Positions 14,106 through 64,000 of a DNA stretch of 64,000 bases are shown here, piece by piece. Position numbers and translations under genes: made by a program. Origin of the DNA: an uncultured Verrucomicrobia subdivision 3 bacterium (GTDB taxonomy: Bacteria > Verrucomicrobiota > Verrucomicrobiia > Limisphaerales > UBA8199); NCBI GenBank assembly GCA_903913865.1, contig CAIWMU010000141.1:1-64000 (forward strand), read 5' to 3'. A model generated the notes under the pieces. That model saw only the letters and a program-made list of their open reading frames with translations, did not search any database and was not told the DNA's origin. The first letter of the stretch is position 1; the number at the start of each line of letters is the position of its first letter.

Positions 14106-14129
14106 AAGTTTCCACAACCTGAACTTACG

Positions 14130-41012: not shown

Positions 41013-41026
41013 TCAGCGCCAGGGGA

Positions 41027-42157: not shown

Positions 42158-42166
42158 GTTTTCTTT

Positions 42167-46892: not shown

Positions 46893-49259
46893 TCAAGGAT
46901 GGCTCATTGTGGGTTTGCCCGTCGTGCTTCGGATTCCGGCACCCCGCAGGTCATCCGGGTTCCAGATCGTAGCTGCGATGTGCTGCTCGATGCGCTCGGG
47001 AGTGCTGTAGTAGTAAATGGTCACGAGCCTGCCATCCGGTCGCTCGACCATTCGGCTATACCCCATGTCCCAAGTTCCGGCATCGTCACGCAGATGAATG
47101 ACACGCCCCCAAGTCGTTCCATTGTCATTACTTATACGCGCACGAATGCCATAAGGGACACCCCGGTAGGCATAGGCCGCGACGATCCGCCCATCCCGCA
47201 AGCGCACGAGAGAGGCCGGATTTCCGTTGTGCTTGCCACGGTCGGTGTCGTCCACCTTGCTCAGAAACCGCCAGGTCGTTCCGTTATCCATGGATTCGTA
47301 AGCGTCGATCCAGTTCGCAGTAATCGGCGGTCGTTCTCCACCCAAACCGTAATCAATGCGCCGACGCAACACGGAAACCAGGTGCATATCCGACACCCGC
47401 ACCGTCGCCGGCATCACCGATCGCACCTCAGTCGGCTGACCTGTCATCCGACCTAGGAAGTGCCAGTTTAGGCCACCATCAGTCGTGCGGGCGCAGAACG
47501 CACGGTCGGAATACTCATCCACCTGAACGTCCTTTTCCTCTGAAGACAAAAAGACCGTACAAGTGTTCGATCCACCGATCAGGTAATCCGTTCGGCTGGT
47601 AAGCCGCCCGGTCGGGAACTTCGTAAAGCGGTAGGGCCCCTCCCAGCTCCTGCCCCTGTCATACGAAATGATGTAGCTGGAATCAAAGCAGCGCATCGCA
47701 AAATCAGGATGCCCGAAATTGATCGGCCGCGTGAGTGAAACCTCACGAATCACCCCGCTCATGGGAAGTTCGGGCTGCTCAAGGTGCCAGGTCTCGCCCC
47801 CATCGAGACTGCGGGAAAGCACCGGGACCTGGGGTTTGGAGGAATCAATTGAATGCCCACCGCCCGAGTTGCTTTTGTGATATCCCAGCCTGAATCCTAC
47901 GAGGATCTCATTACCCCAGCTCCAGATACCGTTGTTTGCTGGCCATCCCGTGAAGCGACCAGGCGCTCCATAAACCAGCACATGCTTGCCGGCAACCCTT
48001 GCGAAGGAATTGCGATCAATTGTGTCCGGATCAGGTTCTGGATGCCAGTTCCAATATTCCTCCTGTGCGGTGGTGTGGCGGATCCGGTTCGCGGGAATAA
48101 GTTCCGGCTCGTGCCCCGACCAGCTCCACTCTACGCGGAAGTTTCCTTTTCCCTCATGCTGGTGCGAATAGTAGACTTGTATCGGATATCCCCGGTCCCG
48201 AGTCATTTCCAAGGCTCCATCCCCCACTCCATCCTTCGTCTCGAGCACCTTCATGTTGGCGATTTTTAGGGTCACCCGTGATTTTGTTTTCACGTGGAAC
48301 GTGATTTTGGTCGATACGGGTGGAATCAAATCTCCCTCCCACATGGCCGACCAGGAAGAACCAAAGCCCGTCTCCGAATCAAATTCCGCGGCCATCGTGG
48401 GCAGAAGAACTCCACCCTTGGCTCGCGTGAAATCCGCATTGCCATACCATGGACCAACCAAACCTGGGCGCTGCTGTCCAGCGGCAGTGATATTTTTCAG
48501 ACAAGCCAGGATAGCTTCTGCGACGGGTTTGGCTAGAACTGCGGAGCCCTCTCTGGTGAAATGCACGTTGTTCGTGATTTGAACCTTTGAAAGCTGAGGC
48601 AGCGCAAAGGCATAAAGATCATTAACCAGAACCCCGCGCTTCGCCGTGACCCTGCGGGCCGCCTCATTGTATAGGGGGACATCCTTCGAACTGCGCGCCG
48701 TAGCGAGTTTTCCTTCCGGCACGGGCGTGGTGGAAGCCCATATCAGTTGGGCGCCGGTCTGTTTGAGGCGTTCTACCAGATGGTCGAGGTTTCGCTCGTA
48801 GTCCGGCAAGGCTACCTGTTGCTGGCCGTTGCCCATCAGCTTCAGATCGTGCAAGCCCCAATTGAAATGAATGACATCCCAACGCTGATTTCCCAGCCAG
48901 GCATCCAGCTTGGCCAGCCCATTGGTGGTGGGTCCGCCATTCTCGGGGATGCGATGCACATTGGCCTTGCCCGCCAACTGTTCCCGCACGGGCAATGTGT
49001 AGCCAATCGAGATCGAATCACCCATCAACAGGACTCGCGGTAATCCAGGAACATCCTGGATGGGGCGCATGGCAGGATTTGCCGGGTCGTTGCTGTAATC
49101 GGACGCTGAATTGGTGAAATCCCCGGCAGGCAGGGCGGAGTTGAAACTGGTGAACACTACCCCGCTCAGTAGCAAGAAGCTGCAATGGAGCCTCAACGAG
49201 GCCTTGGCGGCAGAGAAGATCGAGACGGTTGTGGAATTCAGCTCTTGCTTCTGTTTCAT
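46893..49259 (-). CDS. Secreted SGNH hydrolase - PA14 - sialidase-like fusion
   Basis: A protein of 788 residues with a signal peptide. An SGNH-type esterase lies at about 70-270, with RVLLMGDSISIGYT (Ser), the Gly/Asn blocks RIPENGGPTT and FNWGLHDLK, and a likely Asp-x-x-His as NNVHF. A PA14-like carbohydrate-binding segment follows (about 290-410). The C-terminal 370 residues form a sialidase-type propeller with repeated Asp-box motifs: SLDGGETW, SYDRGRSW, TTDGGLNW, SMDNGTTW and SNDNGTTW. The propeller shares FTGWPANNGIWSWGNEILVG with the sialidase lipoprotein at 51116-52339. Combining deacylation with exo-glycosidase action on one polypeptide suggests a substrate with O-acyl groups that block cleavage. 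It begins three bases after the stop of its upstream neighbour. Confidence 0.85.
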   Translation of the reverse strand: MKQKQELNSTTVSIFSAAKASLRLHCSFLLLSGVVFTSFNSALPAGDFTNSASDYSNDPANPAMRPIQDVPGLPRVLLMGDSISIGYTLPVREQLAGKANVHRIPENGGPTTNGLAKLDAWLGNQRWDVIHFNWGLHDLKLMGNGQQQVALPDYERNLDHLVERLKQTGAQLIWASTTPVPEGKLATARSSKDVPLYNEAARRVTAKRGVLVNDLYAFALPQLSKVQITNNVHFTREGSAVLAKPVAEAILACLKNITAAGQQRPGLVGPWYGNADFTRAKGGVLLPTMAAEFDSETGFGSSWSAMWEGDLIPPVSTKITFHVKTKSRVTLKIANMKVLETKDGVGDGALEMTRDRGYPIQVYYSHQHEGKGNFRVEWSWSGHEPELIPANRIRHTTAQEEYWNWHPEPDPDTIDRNSFARVAGKHVLVYGAPGRFTGWPANNGIWSWGNEILVGFRLGYHKSNSGGGHSIDSSKPQVPVLSRSLDGGETWHLEQPELPMSGVIREVSLTRPINFGHPDFAMRCFDSSYIISYDRGRSWEGPYRFTKFPTGRLTSRTDYLIGGSNTCTVFLSSEEKDVQVDEYSDRAFCARTTDGGLNWHFLGRMTGQPTEVRSVMPATVRVSDMHLVSVLRRRIDYGLGGERPPITANWIDAYESMDNGTTWRFLSKVDDTDRGKHNGNPASLVRLRDGRIVAAYAYRGVPYGIRARISNDNGTTWGRVIHLRDDAGTWDMGYSRMVERPDGRLVTIYYYSTPERIEQHIAATIWNPDDLRGAGIRSTTGKPTMSHP

Positions 49260-49262
49260 AAT

Positions 49263-51113
49263 CTAAGGTCGCCGTGTGCTCTTGCTGCCAGTCGACAGCC
49301 TGACGTTGTCCAGATCATAGCGGCTGGTCGGTTGCACGACATCGGCATTCGGGATGCGGTTTGTGAGCCAGGTCCCGTCCACCTGGGGACGCCGGGTGAA
49401 ATCGCGCAGCCGGAACTCGCCGGTGCGGAACACAATGCGCTCAACACTTCCTGAGTTCTCAAGAAATGCCGCGTTGGTGAGCACCAGGCTTCCGTCCACG
49501 ATCATTGAGTAGCACTGCGCCTCCGCATCCACCGCCAACTCGACGCTCATCCAACGGTTGGTCGCGTAGCCTTTGACGCTTTGCAGCGTGCCACCATTCC
49601 AGGCCATGATGTTGCTGTTCGTAGGATTGAAAGAGAGCGCCACCGCACGGGTGCCGTTGCCCGATACGACGTCAATTTCCATGGGCGCACTTGTGGCGTT
49701 GGACTGGTGCGCGCGAAGCTGGAAAGCCAGGCGCGCGTGAGCGCCCTGCCTGAAGACGCGCGTCACGCTCGCGTAGTCGCAGGGGTCCCTGTCCTCCAGC
49801 CGCACAAATCGGTTCGTCCCCTCCGCGACAATCGCCACCGGCGACCACTGGGGACTGTAGATGTTCCACCCGGCGACCCGGCGACCCGGTGGTTGTGCCT
49901 GGAAATCGTCATGCACGTCATTGGTCACCTGTCCTACAATCGGTGTTGGCACGCAGGCCACCCAGATATCCTCTTTGTTCATGCTGTAGGTCACCCACAG
50001 GTCTGTGCCAGGCGGGTCACCGTTACCGGGGCTGATCCCGCGCACATACTGTGGGCCGGAGTTCTTGTCGTCGCCAGTGCAATTCTCGTATCGCTGGGGC
50101 GGCATATCACCGGCTATGACGAGGTAAGGGGTATCGAAAGTCAGGCCGTCGCTGGAAGTCGTCACCGAGAGCGGCCAGCGCCGATGCAAGTCTCCGCGTG
50201 GTTTCCCGGGAGTGCAGCCGACAAACGCGTAGCGTCCATCCTTGTTGCGAGTCCCCCACACCTTGGCACTGGGATTGAAACCAAATGAAGTGACCTCAAA
50301 GGGAGCAGGAACGCTGTTGCGGTTCCAGTTTGGCCCTGTGCTCACCACCATGTAGTGCCTCTTCCATGCGCCGACGATCCGATTGTCGGGCAGCCGATAC
50401 CAATTGAATGCCTTCCATTCACGCACTCCAGAAATGGTGTCGGTGCTGATGGTGTAAAAGATGGGATCCTGATCCTCCTCCTGCCATTGCTGGCAAAAGA
50501 GAGGGTCAGCGAGCAATGAGTTACATGCAGCCCTGAAGCCTGGATCACTCGAGCTCGTGTAGTAGGGAGCCACTCGCGGGAGCGCCCCGGCAAAGTTGGT
50601 TTTCACATTGTACGTCTCGGGGCCGTAAGACTTCGGGCCAAGAATCTCCCTGACCAATCGCTCGCCCGGCCCACCAGAACGCCCTGCATTTGCCTGACTG
50701 ACGAGGAAACGACCGTTCGGCGCGACATAGAAAGCCATTCTCGAAGCGCCGCCACGAATGACATCGGAAGAATCCGCGTCGGGGTGCCAATCCAGCCCGT
50801 TCGTGGACCAGCACAACTGAACGCCCCCGGAATGGAACGACCAGAATCGCCCGCCCCAGTAGGCGAGCATCTGGTGATGTCGGTAGATGGTTGTACTACC
50901 ATCCGTCGCGCCTGGGTTTTCCGGGGCCGAGCGGGACACTTGGATATTTTGGACGCCGACCGCCCAGCGCAGCTTCCCGTCGTGGGCGGAAAGGGCATCG
51001 CCATAGATGCCGCCCGTGTAGGTTGGCAGTTGGACTGAAGAGACGCTGGCTGCCAGCGCAAGCCAGGCACAGAACGTGGCACAGCTCCGGGGATTGACAG
51101 TGTCGTGTAGCAT
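49263..51113 (-). CDS. Secreted beta-propeller protein with C-terminal jelly roll (paralogue of 53320-55392)
   Basis: The ATG at 51113 (MLHDTVNPRSCATFCAWLAL) gives 616 residues and a signal peptide; an in-frame GTG start nine codons earlier overlaps the previous gene. The first about 400 residues look like a bladed propeller, with AYWGGRFWSFHSGG, WSTNGLDWHPDAD and GPQYVRGISPGNGDPPGTDL followed by WVTYSMNKEDIWV. The C-terminal about 200 residues form a concanavalin-like jelly roll (ARLAFQLRAHQS, RWMSVELAVDAEAQCYSMIV). It shares most of these landmarks with the 690-residue protein in the same cluster. A hydrolytic role on polysaccharide is inferred from context; no family-specific active site is recognised. 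Two bases separate it from the upstream sialidase gene. Confidence 0.78.
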   Translation of the reverse strand: MLHDTVNPRSCATFCAWLALAASVSSVQLPTYTGGIYGDALSAHDGKLRWAVGVQNIQVSRSAPENPGATDGSTTIYRHHQMLAYWGGRFWSFHSGGVQLCWSTNGLDWHPDADSSDVIRGGASRMAFYVAPNGRFLVSQANAGRSGGPGERLVREILGPKSYGPETYNVKTNFAGALPRVAPYYTSSSDPGFRAACNSLLADPLFCQQWQEEDQDPIFYTISTDTISGVREWKAFNWYRLPDNRIVGAWKRHYMVVSTGPNWNRNSVPAPFEVTSFGFNPSAKVWGTRNKDGRYAFVGCTPGKPRGDLHRRWPLSVTTSSDGLTFDTPYLVIAGDMPPQRYENCTGDDKNSGPQYVRGISPGNGDPPGTDLWVTYSMNKEDIWVACVPTPIVGQVTNDVHDDFQAQPPGRRVAGWNIYSPQWSPVAIVAEGTNRFVRLEDRDPCDYASVTRVFRQGAHARLAFQLRAHQSNATSAPMEIDVVSGNGTRAVALSFNPTNSNIMAWNGGTLQSVKGYATNRWMSVELAVDAEAQCYSMIVDGSLVLTNAAFLENSGSVERIVFRTGEFRLRDFTRRPQVDGTWLTNRIPNADVVQPTSRYDLDNVRLSTGSKSTRRP

Positions 51114-51115
51114 CT

Positions 51116-52339
51116 TCACTTTTGATTCCCCAGGTTCCACACCGTGGCCGCGATGTGTTGTTGCGGCAGGTCCTTTGTGGCCCAGTAATACAGCGCCACC
51201 AGGTCACTCCGTTCGTTCGTGGTCAGTTGGGGATAGCCGAAATCATGGTCGCCGAACTTGTCTGGTTGAAAATCCGTACGCAGCACGATCTCCGCACCCC
51301 AGGATTTGCCACCATCGGCGCTCACCCGGGCGACGATTCTGTCGCGCGAGCGGTCGCCATAGGCGCAGACCAGCCGCCCGTCCCTGAGCACCGTCAGTGC
51401 CGGGGGGTTGCCATTCTCCAAGCCGGTTTGGCCGACCCGGCTTGAAAAGTTCCAGGAACGCCCATTGTCGCGCGAGCCGTAACAATCCACCCAACAGGGG
51501 ACCTGCGCGTTCGCAACGTCACGCCGACGCAGCGAGGCGATGATCGTTCCGTCAGCCAGTCGCGCCACGGCCGGCATCACCGCCCGGTAAGGATCCTGGA
51601 GCGGCACTATCCAGGCCACGAAGTGGAAGCTCCTACCTCCGTCGGTGGTCTCAGCCACAAAGCTCTTGTCGGTCGCGATCTGACCCGGGATGCTTCGCGT
51701 GGGTCGCGCCGACATGAACAACAGACAGGAATTGGGGCCGGTCGTCAGGTAGCGCGTGCGCGCGGTCAATTCCATCCCTTGGAGGTTGGCGTCCTTCCTG
51801 AGCGCGCCGAACCGATAAGGGCCTCGCCACGTCCGTCCCCGGTCACCGGAGACAAAAAACGAGCCCGCCGCGTCCTGTGATCCGTGATAGCCCACGCCCA
51901 CGACACGCAAGGCGAAGCCGGGAGACTGAAAGTCGAAGCCACCGGGGGAATCTGTCGCCACTCCCCCGTCGCCTACGAAGTTCTCGGGATCCTCGACCGT
52001 CCAGCTCCGGCCGCCGTCGCGACTGCGAGCCAGACGGCTCACGACACCCAAAGTGGCATCACTCCCGCCCTTGAGGTTGTGGCCCTGCTGTTCGACGTAA
52101 TCTCCGAAGGACAATCCCACCAGAATCTCGCGCCCGCCGTCCCAGCGCCACAGACCGTTATTGGCGGGCCAGCCGCAGAACTTGCCGGCCTCGCTGGCGA
52201 CGATGACATTCCTCATCGACCCTGTCGCATTACTGGTTGCGGGGTGCTTGCAGCCACCGATCGCGAGGGCTGAGAAAAGACCAACCATCAGGGCAATCTT
52301 GGTGTGCAGTTGCTTAATAATTATCGATTTTGATGTCAT
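51116..52339 (-). CDS. Sialidase-family lipoprotein
   Basis: A protein of 407 residues with an N-terminal lipoprotein signal (lipobox LAIGGC), so it is probably anchored in the outer membrane. Five Asp-box motifs mark a six-bladed sialidase fold: SRDGGRSW, SGDRGRTW, TTDGGRSF, SRDNGRSW and SADGGKSW. The first blade reads FCGWPANNGLWRWDGGREIL, nearly the same as in the SGNH-PA14-sialidase fusion, so the two catalytic parts are paralogous. Sialidases and many relatives release a terminal acidic or neutral sugar from glycan chains; the true substrate cannot be read here. The gene lies 20 bases downstream of the cupin gene. Confidence 0.85.
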   Translation of the reverse strand: MTSKSIIIKQLHTKIALMVGLFSALAIGGCKHPATSNATGSMRNVIVASEAGKFCGWPANNGLWRWDGGREILVGLSFGDYVEQQGHNLKGGSDATLGVVSRLARSRDGGRSWTVEDPENFVGDGGVATDSPGGFDFQSPGFALRVVGVGYHGSQDAAGSFFVSGDRGRTWRGPYRFGALRKDANLQGMELTARTRYLTTGPNSCLLFMSARPTRSIPGQIATDKSFVAETTDGGRSFHFVAWIVPLQDPYRAVMPAVARLADGTIIASLRRRDVANAQVPCWVDCYGSRDNGRSWNFSSRVGQTGLENGNPPALTVLRDGRLVCAYGDRSRDRIVARVSADGGKSWGAEIVLRTDFQPDKFGDHDFGYPQLTTNERSDLVALYYWATKDLPQQHIAATVWNLGNQK

Positions 52340-52359: not shown

Positions 52360-53289
52360 CTATTTTCCCGCCGTTGCATCTCCGGACTTCCATCGCGCGA
52401 TTCGACCGGGGGCGACACGGTTGTACATTTGCTCGAAAGTCTTCTCTTTGGTTTCGATCACGTGCGTGTTTAGGCAGAGATAGGTCAGCGTTTCGTCACC
52501 TGCTTCGGTCGTGTGTGGGGCCTTCCAGGGCACAAAAACGACATCGCCAACGGTGACCGGACGGGTTTCATCACCGATTGTCACAGTGCCATGTCCCGCG
52601 AGCACGAAGAATGTCTGCTCTTTCTCCGGATGGGAAACCACCGCGCCTTTGCTGCCCTTGGGCCAACTTACCAAAGTTACCTCAGCACGAACCGCCTCGT
52701 TGCGCTCGAGGATCAGCCGCGTCGTGTTTGACCCGAAGTCGAACAATCGTCCAGCATGAATGTCGGCGACCCATTTACCGGGCCGGTCGAATACCGCACG
52801 AACTTCGGCGCCTGCCACCGCAGATTGCTGAGACTCGGCTTGCTGCCGGCGAACCTGTTTGACATTCGCGATGTGTTCGGCAAAGGACGCGTGGCCTTCC
52901 TTGCTGTCATCCAGAAACGCGTTGAAGAGGATGTAGCCCAACGGCGCATCGCCCGTCACTATGGTTTGATGCACCACCATCGGCGGCACATAGATCAGGC
53001 TGCCGGGCTTGACCGCGTAGCGCGCCGGTCCCACCACGATGATCCCCTCGCCATCTGTTACATGAAAAATCTGCTCCTTGGCCTCGTGGCTATGGGGCGG
53101 CCCTTCCAGCCCCTTGCGCCAGCAATTCCAGCCGACTTCGGTGAGCTGTGTTTCGCTACGGTCCACCAGCACGGTGACGACGTTGAGTCCGGCAACATCA
53201 AGTTGCTGACCATTTTGATAGTGGCGACAGATCATGGTGGTTGGCTGGTGTTGTGCCTGATTTGGAGCCTTCGAATTCTGGATAACCAT
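52360..53289 (-). CDS. Double-cupin (bicupin) protein
   Basis: A protein of 309 residues without signal peptide. Two cupin barrels are visible, each with the metal-binding pattern: first GPPHSHEAKEQIFHVTDGEG and PPMVVHQTI, then VSHPEKEQTFFVLAGHGTVT and VPWKAPHTTEAG. Cupins of this kind bind a metal and act as isomerases, dioxygenases or sugar epimerases, or sense sugars. In this cluster the simplest guess is a sugar isomerase or lactone-handling step, but the family is too broad to say. It lies between the two propeller-type genes, 30 bases after the 690-residue protein's gene. A second start (MICRHY) at 53235 is possible. Confidence 0.85.
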   Translation of the reverse strand: MVIQNSKAPNQAQHQPTTMICRHYQNGQQLDVAGLNVVTVLVDRSETQLTEVGWNCWRKGLEGPPHSHEAKEQIFHVTDGEGIIVVGPARYAVKPGSLIYVPPMVVHQTIVTGDAPLGYILFNAFLDDSKEGHASFAEHIANVKQVRRQQAESQQSAVAGAEVRAVFDRPGKWVADIHAGRLFDFGSNTTRLILERNEAVRAEVTLVSWPKGSKGAVVSHPEKEQTFFVLAGHGTVTIGDETRPVTVGDVVFVPWKAPHTTEAGDETLTYLCLNTHVIETKEKTFEQMYNRVAPGRIARWKSGDATAGK

Positions 53290-53319: not shown

Positions 53320-55392
53320 CTATTGCACTGGGCTGGTGCGCAAGTCATCCACCAAATAGACACTCAGCGGCACGCGCTGGTCTGCTCCGGGCAGGTCTTC
53401 GCTGGTGAAACCCAGGGTGGCATGTTCACCCTCCACATAGATCGCGCGCACATCACCGCGATATGGTCCAGTGCGGAAGACCAGGCGCTCGACGGTTTCA
53501 ACTTTTTCCGCAAACTTCACGCCCTTTCCAACAGTCTTCCCATCCAGGGCAATGTCGTAACTTCCCGCAGCGCAATTGATCACCAGCTGAACCGCAAGCC
53601 ACCCATTCGCGGGGGCCGGGATGGAAGTGACCCAACGGTCCATCTGGTCCTGGGCCAGCCATTTCTCGTCCAGCCGAATCTTCAGCGGGCGATGTCCATA
53701 ACGATCTTGCACCTCGGCTTCCAGCACTCCGTGGCCAACTTTCTCTGCCAGCACGCGGAACTCAATTCGGACCCGCGAGCTTTCAGGAAACGCACGTTCA
53801 GCCAACGCATAGTCGTAGGGGGCTTCGTCACGCAGTTCGAGGCACTTGTTGCCGCTCTGATGTGGGTCATTGACGATGCCGATTGTCGCCCACTGAGGTT
53901 CATACAAATTCCACAATTCCAGTTGAGCCATGGACTCCACCCTGTCGAAGGTTTCCTCAACTTGTTGGGTGACAGTTCCGGTCACCGGCACGTGGGTGCG
54001 TGTCACCCAAATATCCTCCTTGTTCATACTGTAGGTGTTCCAGAGATAAGAACCGGGCGGCTTGCCGTTGCCTTCCTCGATGCCGCGGACGTATTGCGGG
54101 CCGGCATTCTTGTACAGGCCGGCAAAACGCCGTGGCGGCACCTCCCCGTGGAGGCAGAGCATGTTGGCGAAATCCCGGCAATCGTCACTGCTCATGACAA
54201 CCAGGGGAAACCGGTTGTTGCGCGTCACTGAGTGGTTATAGACCAGCGCGTAGCGGCCATCGTCTGTCCCCTGCACCCAGGTCTTGGCGCCGCACGGTAT
54301 CAGGGAGGGCGCTCCCACGAGCTTCGTCCACGACTTTCCTTCATCAGGGCTGAGCGCGTAATGTGCCTTCCACACGCCGAGCACCGTGCCATCCGGTCTG
54401 TGGGCGTAGCTTGGTGCCTTTGGCTCAGCCTTCTCAGGCTGGATGGTGTAGAAACCGTCCGTGGCGCGATCCTCCTCCCACCATTGCAGGGTCATCAACT
54501 TGTCAGCGAGCAAGGCATCACACGCCGTAACGAATCCCACGTCAGGACTGGTTTTGTAAAAGGAGTAACTGGTGTTGGTTTCGTTCCACCCGGCATGGCG
54601 GTTGTAACGGATGAAGTAAATCGGGCCGACCGTGTTGTCGGCATGAATCTCGCAGACAACGCGGCCCAAACCCTGACCCTTGTTCGGGCCTTTTTGGGGG
54701 AGCGGATCAATGCAGAAGCTGTAAAAGCCCAATGTGAGCAGCCGCCCGTTTGGCGCGGTGTAGAAGCCCATCCGCTGGTGCATTACCGCCGGCGTTCCGG
54801 CTGGAAGAGAGCTGTCGGCATTCTTGATCTCCGGCAAAGCGTATTCCGGGAAGACCACATGCGGATTCGACCAATGCTGACCGTCGACGGACGTCATCAG
54901 CAACGTCCTTCCGGGTGGAACGTGCTCCGACTTGGGGGTGCTGAGATATTGGAGATAAAACTGACCGCGCCAATAGGCCAGATACGGCTGGTGATTATAG
55001 GTCCAGCCGATCGCCCCACCCTCGGACGGACAAGTGCGATTGGCGCGGAGAGCCTGGTAATAATGGACGCCAACCGCGTGACGGAGTGCGCCGTCGTAGA
55101 GTCGTTTGTCGGGCTGTTCCTTGCCGACATAACGGATGGGTTCCGAAGCAGACTCCGCGACAGTCGGCGGCATCGTGGCAGTTGCCGCGCCGCGAGCTGC
55201 GCTGGTGAGCAACAAGCATGCGGCTGTGAGAATGCCAGGACAACGCAGCAGTGTAATCGGTGCGACCCGGCGCAAGCCCAGGATTAAAATGCGACCCCTG
55301 CGAACCGTCATATCAATTGGAAGCCGACGGTAATTCATAGGGGTCACTCCCTTTGGGAGCGAACGTTTCAACGCAATAAGAAGGCTTCTCAT
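53320..55392 (-). CDS. Secreted beta-propeller protein with C-terminal jelly roll (paralogue of 49263-51113)
   Basis: A protein of 690 residues. The start at 55392 overlaps the stop of the preceding open frame (ATGA). An in-frame ATG at 55338 (MNYRRLPIDM) is an alternative. A hydrophobic region near residues 36-68 probably serves as export signal. Bladed propeller landmarks match the paralogue: LAYWRGQFYLQYLSTP, GPQYVRGIEEGNGKPPGSYL then WNTYSMNKEDIWV. The C-terminal half carries a concanavalin-like domain (RVRIEFRVLAEKVGHGVLEA, VQLVINCAAGSYDIALDGKT). It is presumed to act on a polysaccharide outside the cell. No catalytic residues can be assigned with confidence. Confidence 0.78.
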   Translation of the reverse strand: MRSLLIALKRSLPKGVTPMNYRRLPIDMTVRRGRILILGLRRVAPITLLRCPGILTAACLLLTSAARGAATATMPPTVAESASEPIRYVGKEQPDKRLYDGALRHAVGVHYYQALRANRTCPSEGGAIGWTYNHQPYLAYWRGQFYLQYLSTPKSEHVPPGRTLLMTSVDGQHWSNPHVVFPEYALPEIKNADSSLPAGTPAVMHQRMGFYTAPNGRLLTLGFYSFCIDPLPQKGPNKGQGLGRVVCEIHADNTVGPIYFIRYNRHAGWNETNTSYSFYKTSPDVGFVTACDALLADKLMTLQWWEEDRATDGFYTIQPEKAEPKAPSYAHRPDGTVLGVWKAHYALSPDEGKSWTKLVGAPSLIPCGAKTWVQGTDDGRYALVYNHSVTRNNRFPLVVMSSDDCRDFANMLCLHGEVPPRRFAGLYKNAGPQYVRGIEEGNGKPPGSYLWNTYSMNKEDIWVTRTHVPVTGTVTQQVEETFDRVESMAQLELWNLYEPQWATIGIVNDPHQSGNKCLELRDEAPYDYALAERAFPESSRVRIEFRVLAEKVGHGVLEAEVQDRYGHRPLKIRLDEKWLAQDQMDRWVTSIPAPANGWLAVQLVINCAAGSYDIALDGKTVGKGVKFAEKVETVERLVFRTGPYRGDVRAIYVEGEHATLGFTSEDLPGADQRVPLSVYLVDDLRTSPVQ

Positions 55393-55811
55393 AAATTGTT
55401 ACCGGCAGTCACGGCGTAATTGTTGGCACTGCGCAGGAAGAATCCGAGTCGGACGCCCTTCCCGGCGAGTTGGCACAGAGCAACATCGCCCCGTTTCAGG
55501 AGGATGTCACGCCGGTCCTCGTTCCGGATTACGCACCGCTCTGCCTCGAGTCCGGGAATGCCCCTCCCCTGCTCATCTTGAACGGCCACCATCACATAAC
55601 CCTGCCCGCTGGGGAAATAGGACTGGGCGTTCACACCCCGTCCCGGTGACAGCGTGACAGAACGGATGGACTTCCACGAGTTGGTCTCTTGGAAGGATTC
55701 CGTTCCCCGCCCGACCTCCGTCAGTTGCTGCCCGAATACTTCCCATTTGCCATCCAAAAGTGGAAAACAGCCAGCCACAGTGAGGGGGGAAGGCTCGCAC
55801 TCGAGAATCAA
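55389..55811 (-). pseudogene. C-terminal domain remnant of a glycoside-hydrolase-like gene
   Basis: The minus strand codes for a stretch ending ...GRDVALCQLAGKG-type then VRLGFFLRSANNYAV. A closing beta domain with a KxVRLxFFLRxADLYAF-like end is typical of large sialidase-type or glycoside hydrolase proteins. The only start is a TTG at 55811; the frame stays open without a better start up to a TAG at 55943-55941, and the extra part (QDAGLTVRFWRLLF) also looks protein-like. It overlaps the start of the 690-residue gene by four bases. I read it as the 3' end of a gene whose front was lost, though a small stand-alone protein is not excluded. Confidence 0.5.
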
Positions 55812-57087: not shown

Positions 57088-58227
57088 TCATCTTGTGATC
57101 AGGTGCTCCGGCCAGCAGTAACTCCCTGGCTTGATGGTCAGCAGCGGAGATCCGCCGCCAATCACCGACAAAGTCACCACTCCGGGCGTTACTTCGGCCT
57201 TCACCGCCAGCCGGTGCCAACCCATACAACGCGCCAACGCGACAGCTGTCGCTCCCCCCTCAGCAAAAACATGCCCTACGTCAGCTTTCCCCAGCACTGC
57301 TTTCGCCACACAGACTAGATGCGTTGCCAGCAGTTCGGCAAGCGAAGGGTCGCTCACCTGGGGCAGCCCAACGTGGAGGATTACGCGGGATTCCTGCTCC
57401 AAAGCAGCAACCACTCCTGACACAAGATCGGCAACGTCGGCCGCGTCAAATTCGCCAACATTCGCCAGTTTATCCGGTAGAGAAAACACCGGCACTCCGT
57501 GCTGGGCCTGGCCGGCCACGAAATTCCTCGTGGCTTCGCTTGCGCTGCCGCAGACGAACAACTCCCGCCCCCGTGTGTAATGACTTTGCGGAGCAGTTGC
57601 TGACGGCTTCAACAGCGCTCCAAAAAAATCCGCGCCACCAGCCATAAGCCACTGTTGGCTTCGTAGCTGGGCCCAAGCGAAAATATCGTCCGCCCTGGCA
57701 ACCTCACCAATAACAATCCCGCATTCTGGCAAAAGATCCCCGGGCTTGCCGAAGGAAATCGGCAGCCCCAATGGACTGGCGAGCAGTTCCAGCACGTTCG
57801 GAGACATGCGCGGGTGCTTCGGATCCCGGGCAAACTCCGTTTGGTGAATCAACTGACCGCGCACAAAGTATTGACCATTTACGATCGTCCGTTCGCGTGA
57901 GGGATTGGCCGGAACCAGTAGTGCACCAAACAGGCCCAGTCGCTTGACGATAGCTTCGATCTCCTGAGTCACGTTGCCGCGCAGAATCGAATCCGTCTTT
58001 TTGAAAATCCAATCTGCGCCGCAGTCCTGGAGCATGCCAGCGGCTTTGGCGGCCCGTTTCCCGGCTTCGAGCGGATCGCAAGAACGCGAGTCGGTGTCCA
58101 CACAGATAAGGTCCGCATCGCTGTCTTGTGCATTCCCGAGAGTAATCTCGGCACGCAACCCATGCCGCCACCCCACGGCACCAATCTCAGCCGCACCGGT
58201 CAAATCGTCTGCTATAACGCCGAGCAT
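57088..58227 (-). CDS. DUF1537 four-carbon acid sugar kinase
   Basis: The ATG at 58227 (MLGVIADDLTGAAEIGAVGW) gives 379 residues; it overlaps the stop of the upstream fusion gene by one base (TAATG), showing translational coupling. The N-terminal domain has the family signature IADDLTGAAE and FKKTDSILRGN, and the C-terminal nucleotide-binding domain is also present. DUF1537 proteins are shown to phosphorylate acid sugars such as D-threonate, D-erythronate and 3-oxo-tetronate. Companion genes for PdxA-like dehydrogenase and a DapA-family aldolase sit in the same unit, as in known threonate/erythronate pathways. The precise acid is unknown. Confidence 0.9.
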   Translation of the reverse strand: MLGVIADDLTGAAEIGAVGWRHGLRAEITLGNAQDSDADLICVDTDSRSCDPLEAGKRAAKAAGMLQDCGADWIFKKTDSILRGNVTQEIEAIVKRLGLFGALLVPANPSRERTIVNGQYFVRGQLIHQTEFARDPKHPRMSPNVLELLASPLGLPISFGKPGDLLPECGIVIGEVARADDIFAWAQLRSQQWLMAGGADFFGALLKPSATAPQSHYTRGRELFVCGSASEATRNFVAGQAQHGVPVFSLPDKLANVGEFDAADVADLVSGVVAALEQESRVILHVGLPQVSDPSLAELLATHLVCVAKAVLGKADVGHVFAEGGATAVALARCMGWHRLAVKAEVTPGVVTLSVIGGGSPLLTIKPGSYCWPEHLITR

Positions 58228-61034
58228 TATTTGATGATTCCCCTGGAAAATGTCACCTGGCTGATTTGCTTGCCGGAGGGATCCCAGCACGTGGCTACCC
58301 CGTCACACATGGAATTGCGCCAGCTCGAGACAGACTTTCTTTGGCCGTTGGACCAGAATTGGATCCAGACCGCGCTACCGTCAGGACGGTGATCCCACGT
58401 CCATTCCACCTTGCCCGCGCGCGACCAATAGGTCTCCTTGCCCGTCTTGAAGCCCTTTCCGTAATTGGCCTCGCGCTGCTTCTGGCCGTTGTCATAATGC
58501 CACACCTCGGTGCCCTCCAGCAGGTAACGGCCATCAGAACCTTTGCCGGCCATCCAGGTCAACCTCGCCTCTCCGTTGGGGTGTTTTTCTATATGCGTTT
58601 GAACGTTGGCCAGTGCCCCGCCGGGGGTCGGTGCCATCGGGTCTGCGCACGTGGCGTGCGGGTCCAGAATCCAAGCCTCGTTCAGTTCGAAGTGCAGATT
58701 GGGACGGTTCATCGTGGTGACCAGGTGGATGACGCCGTTGGGGGCCTGTCGCGCGGCCGAATAGCCGAGGGTCGCGGATTCCAGTTTGCCGTCCTCATGC
58801 GACTGAGCGCCGAGCAACGGTTTGATCGCCCAAGTCTGGCCGTCGTCATTGGACAGGGCAACGTAGGATCCCCGCTCCCTGATCGTGCCCGGCTGCTTAC
58901 CTTCCCGATCCTGGAAATCACCGGCGAAAAACAGCCGACCGCTGCCCAGCCGGAGCAGGCTCGGCCGCTGGTTGCTGGACAGGGCCGCGAATGGAGTCCT
59001 GCTCTTTTCCCAAGTCTTGCCGCCGTCATGAGAGATGACCTTGGGCATGTAACCTTCGATGTTGCTGCTCTTGCCCCCCATGCCGAGAATCGAGCCGTCC
59101 TTCAGCAGCGCATAGGTGGTATGGCGACCCGCGCTGCGCCCCCCTGTATCGTACCAGGTCTTGCCATCGTCGCGGCTTGCCCACAGCACCGAAGAGGCCC
59201 CGGCAGCATCACTGCCCACGTATATCGTCCCGTCCAGTCCCCGGAACGTGGTGTTGATCGGTTGCTTGGAATGCGGCCCGATGGGGCTTGTAAATGCGGG
59301 AAAATGCACAGGCCCAAGCGTCGCGCCATTATCGGTGGACTCAACCCACTGGAATGGGAACGCCGAAGCGAGCCTTGGATTACCCCAGAAGAGCCGCAGG
59401 ACCCCCTTTTCAACCCAGAGCAGTGGAGCATGGTCGTTGACCATTGCGAAATCCATCCACGGGCTTGGCATGTCCCACTCCTCTGTGCCGAATCGCAGCC
59501 TCGCAGCGATCAGTGACACGCCCGGCTCGTATTCGCTGTAGGAAGTGTAAATCACCAGCAGCACATCTCCGTTCGGCAGAACTTCCACCGCCGGGCTGTG
59601 GTTATGCTCGCGAAACGAGGGGTGCAGTCCTGCATCGTCCACAACCTTGCGGTCGCTGTTTTCGAGCGGCGTCGGCATCATGTAGCGTTTGCGGAAGTAG
59701 GGCTTGGCCGGGTCGGGCCCTTGGTTGGCCATGCTGTTGTCTTGCCGCACGCCCTGCCGTGCGTAAGGAACTTCAATGTGCCGGAAGCGGGTCGCTGGCG
59801 CCGCCTGGACCACGCGGAAACCGATCAAGTGCTGGCCAGGGACTTCGGACGTTGCGCCCGTGCCCATGGCCACAACTCTCATTTCCTGAAACCGGTCGTA
59901 AGAAATCGCTGAAGGCGCTACGATCTTCTTCTCCTGTCCGGCCCAGCTCCAGAAAAGGCGCATGAAAGCGTCCCCACCGTTCTGGGTGAACGTGATCTCC
60001 ATTTCGTATTTGCGACCTCCCACCATGTCCACCGTGCCCACCGATGGTGTGCTTTTTTTGCTCCAGGCGCTAATAATCTTCTTCCCATCCACAATGACTT
60101 CCATGCCGTCATCGGCAATTGCCTCGAAGGTCACCAAACCGCTAACCGGGGCCTCAATGAACCCAAGAAAGCGGGCGGACCACTGGCTGCCCTTGTCGAA
60201 CTCGCTGTCCATTTTGCTGAGGTCGAGTTTGTTGATGACGAACTTGTCATGGGGTTTAGTGAGGTTGGGCTCGCCGAAAAAGCGCCCGATCATGCCTTGC
60301 GAGACAGTCTCCGCCGCGGGCTTAACGACCGCCGAACTTTTCCTCGCTCCGCTCTCGGCCGGATAGGCGGTGAAGTCGTCGCCCATCGAGCCGCGCGCAC
60401 CGGAGCGGGCATATTCCGGTTTGTTCTCATCCAATCCCCCACCGCGGAAAACACGGGTGTTGCCCTGGTCTGCCCCAGCCGGATCTCTCTGGTCCTCAAG
60501 GGGGTATTCGCCATAGCGATCAAAGCACCATTCGCGCACGCCGGTGTGCATGTTCTTCAGCCCCCACGCATTGGCGGTCTCCGGCGCAGGTGGTTGATCC
60601 CCCGAGGAAAATTGAGTCACCGTGCCCGCCCGGCACGCATACTCCCACTCGGCCTCTGTAGGCAGGCGATAGGGCTTGCTTTCCTTCTGGCTGAGCCAAT
60701 CGCAAAAGTTCATGGCATCCTTCCAACTGACGCCCGCCACGTAGGGATCGCAACCCGGCGTGCCCTCAAAACCCGGGCGGAACTTCTGGAATTGTTCCAG
60801 CGTCACTTCCGTTTCGGACATACGGAATCCTTCACCGATCGTAACCTTGTGGGCTGGGCGCTCATTCCAGTTGTCATCGCTCGTCTCCGACCCCATCGTG
60901 AAGCTGCCCGCCTGAACAAAAACCAACTTCATGCCGATCGAGTTGATTTTGGGATCGCTGGCAGCATGCGCTAGAACTACAGAAGCCATCAGAACGGCCA
61001 TGATTTCATTGACCACACTCTTAAACGAAAACAT
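58227..61034 (-). CDS. SUMF1-PA14-sialidase-MORN fusion protein, secreted
   Basis: The ATG at 61034 (MFSFKSVVNEIMAVLMASVV) gives 935 residues and a signal peptide; the frame extends 46 codons upstream into pdxA. Four modules follow in order. (1) A SUMF1/FGE-type C-lectin-like domain (about 30-245; NSIGMKLVFVQAGSFTMGSE, YRLPTEAEWEYACRAG). Its RGGGLDENKPEYARSGARG segment lacks both cysteines used by formylglycine-generating enzymes, so it is probably not a sulfatase activator. (2) A PA14-like domain (about 250-395). (3) A sialidase-like propeller with degenerate Asp boxes (STDNGATL, SRDDGKTW, SHDGGKTW, SNDDGQTW). (4) MORN-type repeats (NGEARLTWMAGKG, YDNGQKQREANYGKGFKTGK). It starts 16 bases after pdxA. 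Confidence 0.85.
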   Translation of the reverse strand: MFSFKSVVNEIMAVLMASVVLAHAASDPKINSIGMKLVFVQAGSFTMGSETSDDNWNERPAHKVTIGEGFRMSETEVTLEQFQKFRPGFEGTPGCDPYVAGVSWKDAMNFCDWLSQKESKPYRLPTEAEWEYACRAGTVTQFSSGDQPPAPETANAWGLKNMHTGVREWCFDRYGEYPLEDQRDPAGADQGNTRVFRGGGLDENKPEYARSGARGSMGDDFTAYPAESGARKSSAVVKPAAETVSQGMIGRFFGEPNLTKPHDKFVINKLDLSKMDSEFDKGSQWSARFLGFIEAPVSGLVTFEAIADDGMEVIVDGKKIISAWSKKSTPSVGTVDMVGGRKYEMEITFTQNGGDAFMRLFWSWAGQEKKIVAPSAISYDRFQEMRVVAMGTGATSEVPGQHLIGFRVVQAAPATRFRHIEVPYARQGVRQDNSMANQGPDPAKPYFRKRYMMPTPLENSDRKVVDDAGLHPSFREHNHSPAVEVLPNGDVLLVIYTSYSEYEPGVSLIAARLRFGTEEWDMPSPWMDFAMVNDHAPLLWVEKGVLRLFWGNPRLASAFPFQWVESTDNGATLGPVHFPAFTSPIGPHSKQPINTTFRGLDGTIYVGSDAAGASSVLWASRDDGKTWYDTGGRSAGRHTTYALLKDGSILGMGGKSSNIEGYMPKVISHDGGKTWEKSRTPFAALSSNQRPSLLRLGSGRLFFAGDFQDREGKQPGTIRERGSYVALSNDDGQTWAIKPLLGAQSHEDGKLESATLGYSAARQAPNGVIHLVTTMNRPNLHFELNEAWILDPHATCADPMAPTPGGALANVQTHIEKHPNGEARLTWMAGKGSDGRYLLEGTEVWHYDNGQKQREANYGKGFKTGKETYWSRAGKVEWTWDHRPDGSAVWIQFWSNGQRKSVSSWRNSMCDGVATCWDPSGKQISQVTFSRGIIK

Positions 61035-61050
61035 GTTTGCCTTACTTAAG

Positions 61051-62070
61051 TTAAAAAGTTGCGTTTTTGGCGCGACCCGCTGCGAGCCGGGCGGCGAAAT
61101 GAATCGCGGAGTAAAGGCTCGCAGGATCGGCCTTGCCCTGCCAGGCAATGTCGAACGCCGTGCCGTGATCAACTGATGTGCGAATGATGGGCAACCCGAG
61201 CGTGGTGTTAACGCCTGTGTCGAACGCCAGCATCTTGAATGGAATATGGCCCTGGTCGTGGTAGAGACAAACGAACGCGTCGAACTTTTGGCGAACGCCG
61301 GTGGTGAACGCCGCGTCCGGCACCAGGGGCCCGGTCGCGTTAATCCCGCGTCGTTTTGCCTCGATCACCGCTGGTGCGATGAACTCCTCCTCCTCACTCT
61401 GGCCGAACAAACCGTGTTCGCCCGCATGAGGATTCAAGCCACACACCCCGATGCGAGGCACGCGGCACAACATCGATTGCATGGCTTCGGCCGTGAGTTC
61501 AATGGTGTTCAAAATCCGTTCAACGGACAGTTGGCCTGGCACCTCGTGGTAGCCGATGTGGGTGGTGACCATGCTGACGGTAATTTTGTCCGAGTAGAGC
61601 ATCATGCAACTGCGCTTCGCGCCAGTAAGCTCGCTGAAAATCTCGGTGTGTCCGGGAAAATTCACACCAGCCAGGCGCAAAGCCTCCTTGTGGATCGGGC
61701 CGGTAACGACGCCGTCAACCTTCCTGGCGATGGCAGCCCGGATGGAGTGCTCGATGTAGCTGTAAGCCGCCCGGCCACAGGCGGGGGAAACTTTGCCAGG
61801 TTCGATCTTGTCCACGTCAAGATCGGTGCAATCGACGACAACGGGGGGGGGCGGAGTAGTAAATGAGTTGAATTCCGCCAGCGAGACAACCCGCTCGACT
61901 TTCGCGGCAAGGCCCTTTTCTACCATTCGCCGCAGTAGGCCGGCATCACCGAAGAGCACTGGCACACACTCGTCCAGCACGCCTCGATCGCCCATTGCGC
62001 GCATGCAGATTTCCGGGCCGATGCCCGCTGGATCGCCCATCGTGAGTGCGAGAATAGGCTTGGCGTTCAT
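61051..62070 (-). CDS. PdxA-family 4-hydroxythreonine-4-phosphate dehydrogenase-like enzyme
   Basis: A protein of 339 residues, the usual PdxA length. The start MNAKPILALTMGDPAGIGPE is diagnostic (GDPAGIGPE), followed by FPGHTEIFSELTG, GLNPHAGEHGLFGQSEEEEF and FVCLYHDQGHIPFKMLAF, the metal- and substrate-binding segments. PdxA proper makes part of vitamin B6; PdxA2-type relatives oxidise 4-phospho-D-threonate or -erythronate to dihydroxyacetone phosphate. Placement between a DapA-family gene and a DUF1537 kinase favours the catabolic role. Its ATG overlaps the stop of the DapA-like gene (ATGA). Confidence 0.92.
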   Translation of the reverse strand: MNAKPILALTMGDPAGIGPEICMRAMGDRGVLDECVPVLFGDAGLLRRMVEKGLAAKVERVVSLAEFNSFTTPPPPVVVDCTDLDVDKIEPGKVSPACGRAAYSYIEHSIRAAIARKVDGVVTGPIHKEALRLAGVNFPGHTEIFSELTGAKRSCMMLYSDKITVSMVTTHIGYHEVPGQLSVERILNTIELTAEAMQSMLCRVPRIGVCGLNPHAGEHGLFGQSEEEEFIAPAVIEAKRRGINATGPLVPDAAFTTGVRQKFDAFVCLYHDQGHIPFKMLAFDTGVNTTLGLPIIRTSVDHGTAFDIAWQGKADPASLYSAIHFAARLAAGRAKNATF

Positions 62071-62975
62071 GGCAGATGCAGTTTCTCCAACTCACCGCGC
62101 AACACCTCGACTTCAGTCGCCGCCATAGGTAAAAGTGGCAAAAAGACTTCCGAAGAGCAGATACCACGAATCTGGAGCATGGCCTTCAATGCGGAGATCG
62201 ATTGGGCGAGCGTCCGACCCTTCTGATACACCGCCGCGACCTCGGCCTGGCGTGCGGCGATGGCATCCACTGCGGCCCAGTCGTGGCGACGAGCGGCGGT
62301 GACTTGCTGCTGGCAGGCCTGGGGAATTAGATTCCCAACACTCGGCACAATGCCGTCCGCGCCGGACCTCAACCCTTGCGCCATGAGCGCACCGACACCT
62401 ATGAAAATCGAAAAATCCGGACGTCCCCCGAAGCGCCGGAGCAGCTCCTCATGACGCTTGGGATCATTTTCAGAATCCTTGATACCGACCAGACTTGGGT
62501 GGCCGACCAATTCTCCGATAACCTCAAGCGGGATGGAGACGCGCGTGGTGAGTGGAATGTTGTAGAGTACCACCGGGCCGGGAGCGGCGTCGAGCAACGT
62601 GCGAAACCAGACCTCCAACTCCACCGGACGTGCCGGGAAATAAAAGGGTGGCAGCACGGCAATGACTTCAGCCCCCGCAGCAATGTATTCCCGGGCGCTC
62701 GCGATAGTGTCTGCCAGAGAATTCTCTGCAACATTGGCATAGATGACTAGGCGTCCGCGCGCCGTAAGAACGACGTGTTCAAGGAGCCGGAGTCGAAGCG
62801 TCCGTGGAATACACGGACCTTCGCCGGTGGTTCCAAGGATCAGCAATCCTTCCACACCACCACTAATCTGAGATTCGATCAGGCGATCGAGCGCGGCGAA
62901 ATCCAGCTGCCCGCCGGACGTAATAGGCGTAACAAGCGGCACGACCGCTCCACCGAGTTTGATGGGTTTGATCAT
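62067..62975 (-). CDS. DapA/NanA-family aldolase
   Basis: The ATG at 62975 (MIKPIKLGGAVVPLVTPITS) gives 302 residues, one base after the alcohol dehydrogenase stop; an earlier in-frame start at 63002 is possible. The family signatures are present: GLLILGTTGEGPCI, catalytic Tyr in VVLYNIPLTTRV and Schiff-base Lys in VGIKDSENDP. Members condense or cleave 2-oxo acids with an aldehyde: dihydrodipicolinate synthase, N-acetylneuraminate lyase and KDG aldolase. The surroundings (acid sugar kinase, PdxA, sialidase-like proteins) favour a sugar acid aldolase over lysine biosynthesis. Confidence 0.92.
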   Translation of the reverse strand: MIKPIKLGGAVVPLVTPITSGGQLDFAALDRLIESQISGGVEGLLILGTTGEGPCIPRTLRLRLLEHVVLTARGRLVIYANVAENSLADTIASAREYIAAGAEVIAVLPPFYFPARPVELEVWFRTLLDAAPGPVVLYNIPLTTRVSIPLEVIGELVGHPSLVGIKDSENDPKRHEELLRRFGGRPDFSIFIGVGALMAQGLRSGADGIVPSVGNLIPQACQQQVTAARRHDWAAVDAIAARQAEVAAVYQKGRTLAQSISALKAMLQIRGICSSEVFLPLLPMAATEVEVLRGELEKLHLP

Positions 62976-62976
62976 T

Positions 62977-64000
62977 TCAGTAGGCAGTCTCATAAATTGC
63001 AACCGCGTCAGCCTCAGTCACAGGGCGAACATTATTCTTTAGCAAACGGGTGACCTGCAGGGCGGCCTTGGCCATCTGCGGGATCGCGTCACGCGGGATG
63101 CTTAGCTCTGAAAGCGTTTGCGGCACTCCACAGTCGCGGGACAGTTGCGCCAAGCACTCCACACCACGTTCCGCAGTGACTACTGCATTCGCGCAGGGTG
63201 GCACGCCCAGTGACAGCGACACTTCCGCGTAACGTTCCGCCGCAGCAGGAGCGTTGAAGCGAATAACATGCGGCAACAGCAGGGAGTTGGCGACGCCGTG
63301 CGCAACATGAAACCGTCCACCGAGCGGGTAGGACAGCGCATGCACGGCACCAGTGTTCACCGGGCCGAGGCAAAGCCCGCCATAGAAACTGCCGAGCGCC
63401 AGGGCACCACGGGCTTCCAGATCATTTCCATCGCGCACTGCGCGCAGCAGATTCGCGGAGATGAGGCGGATGCCTTGCAGCGCATAAACATCCACCACTG
63501 GATGCGCGAACTTGTTGGCGTAGGCTTCGATGCAATGTGTGAGCGCATCGAGGCCCGTTGCCGCTGTGACGGCGGCCGGAACGGAGAGGGTGAGCCTCGG
63601 ATCTATGAACACCGCGTCCGGCACGAGATACGGGCTCACGACGCCCTTTTTCAATTCATCGCCTTCATCGAGGAGAATCGCGTTCGGCGAGACCTCCGCT
63701 CCCGTGCCGGCGGTTGTCGGCAGGCAGACGAGCGGGAGGACGCGGCTGGCGAGGAGATTGATGCCGAACACCTCAGAAGTGCTCTGCTTTCCGTATGTGA
63801 GCGCCGCGACGAGTTTGGCGACATCAATCGCGCTCCCGCCTCCAATTCCGAGGACTGCTTCGATGCTCTCATTTCGCCCAACGGCGAGAGCTTCCTCAAA
63901 CGTCTGGCGGGTCGGTTCTCGATCGATCATCAGCGATCGAACGACGGCAACTCCTACTTTCGCCAACGCCTCCAGCACACCAGTCAGCATTGGCAGAACG
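62977..64000 (-). CDS. Iron-containing alcohol dehydrogenase, N-terminus outside the window
   Basis: At least 337 residues are visible and the frame stays open to the window edge; family members are about 380 residues, so roughly 40 are missing. Nucleotide binding is shown by VLGIGGGSAIDVAKLVA and CLPTTAGTGAEVSPNAIL. Metal ligands occur in TGLDALTHCIEAYANKFAHP and FHVAHGVANSLLLPHVIRFN. The group oxidises alcohols or reduces aldehydes with NAD(P). As first gene of the acid-sugar unit it could oxidise or reduce a sugar-derived alcohol. It abuts the DapA-family gene with a single base between stop and start. Confidence 0.9.
   Translation of the reverse strand, partial: VLPMLTGVLEALAKVGVAVVRSLMIDREPTRQTFEEALAVGRNESIEAVLGIGGGSAIDVAKLVAALTYGKQSTSEVFGINLLASRVLPLVCLPTTAGTGAEVSPNAILLDEGDELKKGVVSPYLVPDAVFIDPRLTLSVPAAVTAATGLDALTHCIEAYANKFAHPVVDVYALQGIRLISANLLRAVRDGNDLEARGALALGSFYGGLCLGPVNTGAVHALSYPLGGRFHVAHGVANSLLLPHVIRFNAPAAAERYAEVSLSLGVPPCANAVVTAERGVECLAQLSRDCGVPQTLSELSIPRDAIPQMAKAALQVTRLLKNNVRPVTEADAVAIYETAY

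What the first reader, a model, noticed from the sequence alone, without database searches (positions are those of the whole stretch)
46893..49259. Esterase-PA14-sialidase fusion: deacylation and exo-cleavage on one chain
Seen: SGNH blocks, PA14-like region and five Asp boxes within 788 residues. Known: many sialic and uronic acid residues carry O-acetyl groups that block exo-glycosidases, and bacteria usually solve this with separate esterases. Inference: coupling both activities makes the enzyme suited to O-acylated terminal acidic sugars, perhaps in algal or mucin-like glycans.
Basis: partly seen in the sequence, partly recalled or inferred. Interest (0 to 1): 0.62.

Follow-up and report, generated by a model that had tools for sequence, protein, structure and literature searches.

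The report
Esterase-lectin-sialidase-fold protein in acid-sugar operon
A lake or soil Verrucomicrobium encodes one secreted protein that joins a predicted deacetylase, a predicted sugar-binding domain and a sialidase-shaped domain, and its operon looks built to release and eat Dha, a rare acid sugar of plant pectin and algal scales, rather than sialic acid.

Summary
ORF 46893-49259 (minus strand, 788 aa) holds an SGNH domain, a PA14 domain and a six-bladed sialidase-type propeller with five Asp boxes.

The SGNH Ser and His are conserved in all relatives compared, but the block-III Asn is His and the acid before the catalytic His is Asn. The module is a recurrent plug-in in this order, also fused to GH36-, GH88-, GH29- and sulfatase-type enzymes. 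The propeller belongs to a GWPANxG family (over 500 genome loci). It has the sialidase fold but lacks the GH33 RIP motif.

Two orthologues share the fusion, both Verrucomicrobia. PA14-propeller proteins without SGNH recur beside GH143 genes.

The operon carries a strong GH143 (Dha-hydrolase) homologue, a divergent GH143 relative, and a symporter, aldolase, Fe-alcohol dehydrogenase, DUF1537 kinase and PdxA. In 9 of 11 other verrucomicrobial GH143 loci the last four sit beside GH143. This predicts Dha -> pyruvate + D-threuronate -> D-threonate -> DHAP. NanE is absent, so sialic acid is unlikely.

Best reading: a deacylase/exo-ulosonidase for O-acylated Dha- or Kdo-like residues. An esterase-sialidase fusion is already known (B. 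bifidum SiaBb1), so this is a new variant. Substrate and activity are inferred.

The parts
46893..49259 (-). SGNH-PA14-propeller fusion, 788 aa, predicted secreted (N-terminal hydrophobic stretch about residues 26-36)
48498..49037 (-). SGNH hydrolase domain, residues about 75-254; Ser82 (codon 49014-49016), His137 (48849-48851), His233 (48561-48563)
   Evidence: PF13472 E 2.3e-9; alignment of 14 sequences; nearest solved structure 4h08/BT3161
48066..48473 (-). PA14 domain, residues about 263-398, predicted glycan-binding
   Evidence: PF07691 E 5.2e-7; pLDDT above 90
46953..48005 (-). Six-bladed sialidase-type propeller, residues 419-769, GWPANxG family
   Evidence: PF13088; VIA Z 31.4 to 5hx0, about 28 to Neu2; invariant or nearly invariant residues W439 P440 N442 H469 R483 R556 R632 R699 D731 Y734 Y749 Y750
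47787..47810 (-). Asp box 1 SLDGGETW (residue 484)
47643..47666 (-). Asp box 2 SYDRGRSW (residue 532)
47463..47486 (-). Asp box 3 TTDGGLNW (residue 592)
47271..47294 (-). Asp box 4 SMDNGTTW (residue 656)
47109..47132 (-). Asp box 5 SNDNGTTW (residue 710)
49263..51140 (-). Divergent GH143-like protein (GH143b), 3 bp upstream of the fusion gene
   Evidence: PF24067 E 1.5e-27 and PF22585 3.5e-27; 5mqr E 6.6e-75
51116..52339 (-). Stand-alone GWPANxG propeller, 407 aa, 42% identical to the fusion's propeller
52360..53289 (-). Two-cupin protein, recurrent neighbour of GH143 and PA14-propeller genes
   Evidence: PF07883
53320..55392 (-). GH143 homologue (predicted Dha hydrolase), lacks BT1020's C-terminal GH142 half
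   Evidence: PF24067 E 9.5e-98; 5mqr residues 21-611 E 1.5e-128
57088..58290 (-). DUF1537 kinase; best NCBIfam model D-threonate kinase (below cut-off)
58227..61172 (-). FGE-type domain + PA14 + BNR propeller protein
   Evidence: PF03781, PF07691, PF13088
61051..62070 (-). PdxA-family dehydrogenase (predicted PdxA2-type, 4-phospho-D-threonate)
   Evidence: PF04166 E 7e-103
62067..63002 (-). DHDPS/NanA-family aldolase (predicted to cleave Dha)
   Evidence: PF00701 E 4e-49
62977..63990 (-). Fe-containing alcohol dehydrogenase (predicted D-threuronate reductase); true start may lie beyond the window end
   Evidence: PF25137/PF00465
43404..46700 (-). 1098-aa protein downstream; weak profile link to alpha/alpha-toroid glycosidases; conserved next to the fusion in L092

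Best explanation
[quoted passage not shown] Steps: (1) PA14 holds the protein on the glycan (inferred). (2) The SGNH domain removes an O-acyl group, most likely acetyl, from or beside the terminal acid sugar (inferred; nucleophile and His conserved). (3) The propeller then cleaves the exposed terminal ulosonic acid, alongside GH143 (inferred from fold, conserved arginines and operon). (4) Released Dha is taken up by the Na+/solute symporter, split by the DHDPS-family aldolase to pyruvate and D-threuronate, reduced by the Fe-alcohol dehydrogenase to D-threonate, phosphorylated by the DUF1537 kinase and oxidised/decarboxylated by the PdxA-type enzyme to DHAP (gene linkage shown; reactions inferred).
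For: Domains and fold. SGNH Ser/His conserved. GH143 homologue in the same gene run at E 1.5e-128 to BT1020 (5mqr); second, divergent GH143 relative 3 bp upstream of the fusion. Catabolic genes. Largely the same operon in a related genus of the same family, including the 1098-aa neighbour at 84%. Across the class, 9 of 11 further GH143 loci carry PdxA, DUF1537, DHDPS and Fe-ADH side by side (8 also the symporter), in differing gene order. In five of those genomes an apiosidase-family gene lies 11-17 kb from GH143, as expected of an RG-II locus. PA14-propeller proteins stand near GH143, mostly with the cupin, in KSB1, Ignavibacteria and others. The D-lyxo configuration of Dha gives D-threonate after C3-C4 cleavage and reduction (own chemical reasoning); DUF1537 includes D-threonate kinases (PMC10971088). 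No NanE in nine genomes.
Against: No activity is known to me for any GWPANxG propeller; its nearest solved relative, 5hx0, is uncharacterised. Most relatives of the propeller are not near GH143 (about 10 of 99 loci have it), so the family need not be Dha-specific. GH143 loci in the family that holds eight of the nine linked cases manage without this propeller. The SGNH active site departs from the canonical motif in two positions. No O-acyl group on Dha is known to me. Kinase and PdxA scores fall below the NCBIfam equivalog cut-offs for the D-threonate enzymes.
Confidence: 0.45

Rival explanations
1. The propeller cleaves sialic acid or another nonulosonic acid and the SGNH domain is a sialate O-acetylesterase, as in SiaBb1.
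For: Sialidase fold, five Asp boxes, NanA-like aldolase and a YhcH-type protein with a match to the N-acetylneuraminate anomerase model in the operon, working precedent SiaBb1.
Against: NanE absent from this genome and eight relatives while the control search rings in 8 of 14 genomes (AGE-type epimerases were not tested); PdxA, DUF1537 and Fe-ADH have no known place in sialic acid catabolism; GH143 homologue in the same gene run; RIP motif replaced by GWPANxG in all 29 relatives compared.
Confidence: 0.12
2. The propeller is an exo-hydrolase for a different residue of the same polysaccharide (for example Kdo, 5-O-methyl-Kdo or an arabinose capping Dha), and SGNH strips acetyl groups elsewhere on the chain, independently of the cleavage.
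For: GH93 arabinanases share the fold; the operon already has GH143 proteins for Dha; the SGNH module is fused to unrelated glycosidases elsewhere; 5-O-methyl-Kdo and Dha occur together in prasinophyte scales (PMC10762512).
Against: Invariant arginines in the propeller suggest an acidic ligand; nothing in the operon points to Kdo catabolism.
Confidence: 0.28
3. One half is a non-catalytic or degenerate binding module: the propeller binds acid sugars without cleaving, or SGNH is an inactive or non-hydrolytic domain.
For: SGNH lacks canonical Asn and Asp; the propeller lacks the GH33 RIP motif.
Against: Ser and His are kept across 14 SGNH sequences; about 40 propeller positions are invariant in 25 sequences; NanS likewise works with no identified acidic residue (PMC10017367).
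Confidence: 0.15

Closest known systems
SiaBb1, O-acetylesterase/sialidase fusion of Bifidobacterium bifidum (PMC10298468, PMC10017367)
   Same: SGNH esterase and sialidase-fold domain on one extracellular chain; deacylation helps exo-cleavage
   Different: SiaBb1 has a true GH33 domain and acts on sialic acid; here the propeller lacks the RIP motif, a PA14 domain sits between, and the operon points to Dha
BT1020 / GH143 Dha hydrolase and GH142 (PDB 5mqr), RG-II degradation (enzyme activities from own knowledge)
   Same: Propeller hydrolases of the same operon are homologues of its N-terminal half (E 1.5e-128 and 6.6e-75)
   Different: The fusion's own propeller does not match PF24067; no GH142 homology was detected in the neighbouring 1098-aa protein
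Uncharacterised Dfer_1899 propeller (PDB 5hx0)
   Same: Nearest solved structure of the propeller, 21-23% identity, Z 31.4
   Different: No SGNH or PA14 part in the solved chain; function unknown
DUF1537/PdxA2 four-carbon acid-sugar pathways (D-threonate kinase DtnK; PMC10971088)
   Same: Kinase and PdxA-type genes in one cluster
   Different: Here linked to GH143, a DHDPS aldolase and an Fe-ADH, which suggests D-threonate arises inside the cell from Dha
BT3161 (PDB 4h08), putative SGNH hydrolase
   Same: About 30% identity, shares the GLH variant of block III
   Different: Keeps Asp before the catalytic His (DGTH); stand-alone; function unknown

Membership tests
GH33 sialidase | Six-bladed sialidase propeller with Asp boxes | tested here: met
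GH33 sialidase | RIP motif with first catalytic Arg in blade 1 | tested here: not met
   GWPANxG stands in blade 1 of all 29 relatives and the propeller contains no RIP; register taken from structure alignment ranges
GH33 sialidase | Full Arg triad, Tyr/Glu nucleophile pair, Asp acid/base in geometry | tested here: inconclusive
   Profile alignment pairs R632 and Y734 with GH33 Arg and Tyr segments; no coordinates were at hand for superposition
GH143 (Dha hydrolase) | PF24067 propeller match for the fusion protein | tested here: not met
   no match at E 0.1 or better; the neighbours 53320-55392 and 49263-51140 do match
SGNH hydrolase superfamily | Block I GDS serine and block V His | tested here: met
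   Ser82 and His233, conserved in 14 of 14 sequences
SGNH hydrolase superfamily | Block III GxND Asn and DxxH Asp | tested here: not met
   GLHD and NNVH here; the same or similar in most relatives
Esterase-sialidase fusions (SiaBb1 kind) | SGNH and sialidase-fold domains on one chain | tested here: met
Esterase-sialidase fusions (SiaBb1 kind) | Both activities on the same acid sugar | not testable with these tools
   needs enzyme assays
RG-II utilisation locus | Other RG-II enzymes (e.g. GH140 apiosidase) in the same locus | tested here: not met
   PF13204 genes of this genome lie on contigs C110, C44 and C11, not C141; they lie 11-17 kb from GH143 in five other genomes
D-threonate pathway (DtnK/PdxA2) | DUF1537 kinase and PdxA-family dehydrogenase together | tested here: met
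D-threonate pathway (DtnK/PdxA2) | NCBIfam equivalog cut-offs for the D-threonate enzymes | tested here: not met
   NF047819 142.8 of 450 bits; NF002891 289 of 583 bits

The most novel reading that the evidence does not exclude
The locus is a dedicated system for O-acylated, Dha/Kdo-rich polysaccharide (algal scales or thecae, or RG-II): a fused deacetylase-ulosonidase plus several ulosonidase propellers outside, and a complete, so far unreported route Dha -> pyruvate + D-threuronate -> D-threonate -> DHAP inside.
Probability: 0.35. Interest if true: 0.68.

Novelty: new variant of a known kind. Interest (0 to 1): 0.48.

Why it matters
I found no published bacterial route for Dha once GH143 has released it in the literature I could search. 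The conserved linkage of GH143 with an aldolase, Fe-ADH, DUF1537 kinase and PdxA gives a stereochemically consistent pathway that can be tested with a handful of purified proteins. The fusion would add a deacylase coupled to a sialidase-like enzyme of a family (over 500 genome loci) with no activity known to me, and points to Verrucomicrobia as consumers of algal-scale or pectin ulosonic acids.

Tried and rejected
Single-sequence scan of genome contigs found no relative; the alignment scan did. The 1098-aa neighbour as GH142 (beta-L-arabinofuranosidase on Dha): no hit to 5mqr by phmmer or profile (weak hits to YgjK and an exo-arabinofuranosidase), and its AlphaFold model failed (pLDDT 30, three sequences), so it stays unassigned. 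HpcH/HpaI-type gene in L110 as Dha aldolase: dropped, because it has a signal-like N-terminus. Rhizobium plasmid homologues of the propeller have no informative neighbours. Literature searches for Dha catabolism found nothing, but most subscription papers are not held. Enrichment of DHDPS near propeller genes in general is modest (13 of 99 loci against 1 of 12 controls) and is not used as evidence. A direct residue-by-residue superposition on GH33 was not possible.

Full report
Observation. The ORF at 46893-49259 (minus strand, 788 aa) carries the three domains claimed: Lipase_GDSL_2 (E 2.3e-9), PA14 (5.2e-7) and BNR_2 (4.6e-12), each over its Pfam cut-off. Five Asp boxes at residues 484, 532, 592, 656 and 710 are not chance (no shuffle of 20,000 gave more than one). 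The AlphaFold2 model is confident for PA14 and propeller and weak for the SGNH active-site loops. The propeller aligns with 5hx0 (Z 31.4) and, in the same order along the chain, with GH33 sialidases such as human Neu2 (Z about 28, residues 419-775).

SGNH half. Its nearest relatives are about 50-65% identical and come from the same bacterial order. Ser82 and His233 are kept in all 14 aligned sequences; the block-III Asn is His (GLHD) and the residue three before the catalytic His is usually not Asp. E. coli NanS is a working SGNH esterase whose acidic residue is likewise unidentified (PMC10017367), so this does not argue for inactivity. Pfam shows the same module joined to GH36-type, GH88, GH29 and sulfatase domains and to a 3-keto-disaccharide hydrolase domain in other genomes, so it behaves as a plug-in deacylase of wide use.

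Propeller half. It belongs to a family marked by GWPANxGxWxWG near its start; 536 loci in the GTDB-based collection match. Trp439, Pro440, Asn442, His469, Arg483, Arg556, Arg632, Arg699, Asp731, Tyr734, Tyr749 and Tyr750 are invariant or nearly so. The RIP motif of GH33 is absent. A profile search pairs Arg632 and Tyr734 with GH33 Arg and Tyr segments, which hints at an acidic substrate and a sialidase-like mechanism, but this is inference.

Architecture elsewhere. Two orthologues carry the same SGNH-PA14-propeller order: L092 (82% in the propeller) and L093 (76%), both Verrucomicrobia MAGs; L093 has a further C-terminal GH123 domain. No other such fusion was seen among 58 relatives searched with the whole protein, in the propeller hits from 384 class genomes that were examined, or among the best 80 genome-contig loci. 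PA14-propeller proteins without SGNH occur in KSB1, Ignavibacteria and other bacteria, several of them with GH143 and the cupin nearby (L094, L095, L097, L110, L115, L118). The simplest history is a GH143-linked PA14-propeller protein that gained an SGNH domain in Verrucomicrobia (inference).

Operon. Upstream of the fusion gene, 3 bp away, is a divergent GH143-like gene (5mqr E 6.6e-75), then a stand-alone GWPANxG propeller, a two-cupin gene and a GH143 homologue that matches BT1020 residues 21-611 at E 1.5e-128. Further upstream on the same strand come a PEP-CTERM protein, DUF1537 kinase, an FGE-PA14-BNR protein, PdxA, DHDPS aldolase and Fe-ADH and, past the window end on the same contig (L026), a sodium:solute symporter, a YhcH-type protein and a third GH143-like propeller. 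Gaps of 558 and 282 bp flank the PEP-CTERM gene, so more than one transcript is possible. In genome G009 most of these genes recur in one cluster, including the 1098-aa neighbour at 84% identity, without the SGNH fusion.

Catabolic logic. In 286 genomes of the class, GH143-type PF24067 matches (E below 1e-70) gave 11 loci besides the window; 9 of these carry PdxA, DUF1537, DHDPS and Fe-ADH next to GH143, and 8 also the symporter, in varying order. Eight of the nine come from one family, so they are not all independent, but three families are represented when the window and G009 are counted. In five of these genomes an apiosidase-family gene lies 11-17 kb from GH143, which fits RG-II, where Dha occurs (PMC12168206). 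Dha has the D-lyxo configuration; retro-aldol cleavage between C3 and C4 gives pyruvate and D-threuronate, whose reduction gives D-threonate (own chemical reasoning), a substrate of the DUF1537 kinase DtnK (PMC10971088); the PdxA2 step to DHAP and CO2 is from my own knowledge. NCBIfam's D-threonate kinase model is the best hit of the DUF1537 protein, but it and the D-threonate 4-phosphate dehydrogenase model score under their equivalog cut-offs.

Substrate. Sialic acid is disfavoured: NanE is absent from nine genomes tested, while the control rings in 8 of 14. Among plants Dha is found only in RG-II (PMC12168206); Dha and 5-O-methyl-Kdo also build prasinophyte scales and the Tetraselmis theca (PMC10762512). 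This contig has no apiosidase-family gene but the cluster has six sialidase-fold propellers, so an ulosonate-rich algal glycan is a reasonable guess; RG-II is not excluded.

Verdict. Real architecture, partly supported interpretation, new variant of the known esterase-sialidase fusion. The more valuable lead is the GH143-linked pathway.

Noticed in passing
L203, L205-L212 and window 53320-63990: GH143 is linked to Fe-ADH, DHDPS aldolase, DUF1537 and PdxA in 9 of 11 other verrucomicrobial GH143 loci: a predicted Dha catabolic pathway.
   Followed up: yes
window 58227-61172: FGE-sulfatase-type domain fused to PA14 and a BNR propeller; homologues recur beside GWPANxG propellers in 16 of 99 loci examined, role unknown.
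   Followed up: partly
L093:4006-8109: Orthologue with a fourth domain, GH123-type, at the C-terminus.
   Followed up: partly
L031, L037, L038, L044, L045: The same SGNH module is fused to GH36-, 3-keto-disaccharide-hydrolase-, sulfatase-, GH88- and GH29-type domains: a mix-and-match deacylase.
   Followed up: partly
window 52360-53289: Two-cupin protein that recurs next to GH143 genes in several phyla; possibly a ring-opening or isomerising step.
   Followed up: no
window 9569-19530: Type I restriction-modification system (HsdR, HsdS, HsdM) with an SMC/AAA-like gene between.
   Followed up: no
window 33507-42820: Two RND transporters, a membrane-fusion protein and a TetR regulator just downstream of the operon.
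   Followed up: no
window 55951-56805: PEP-CTERM-tagged protein of unknown function inside the operon.
   Followed up: no
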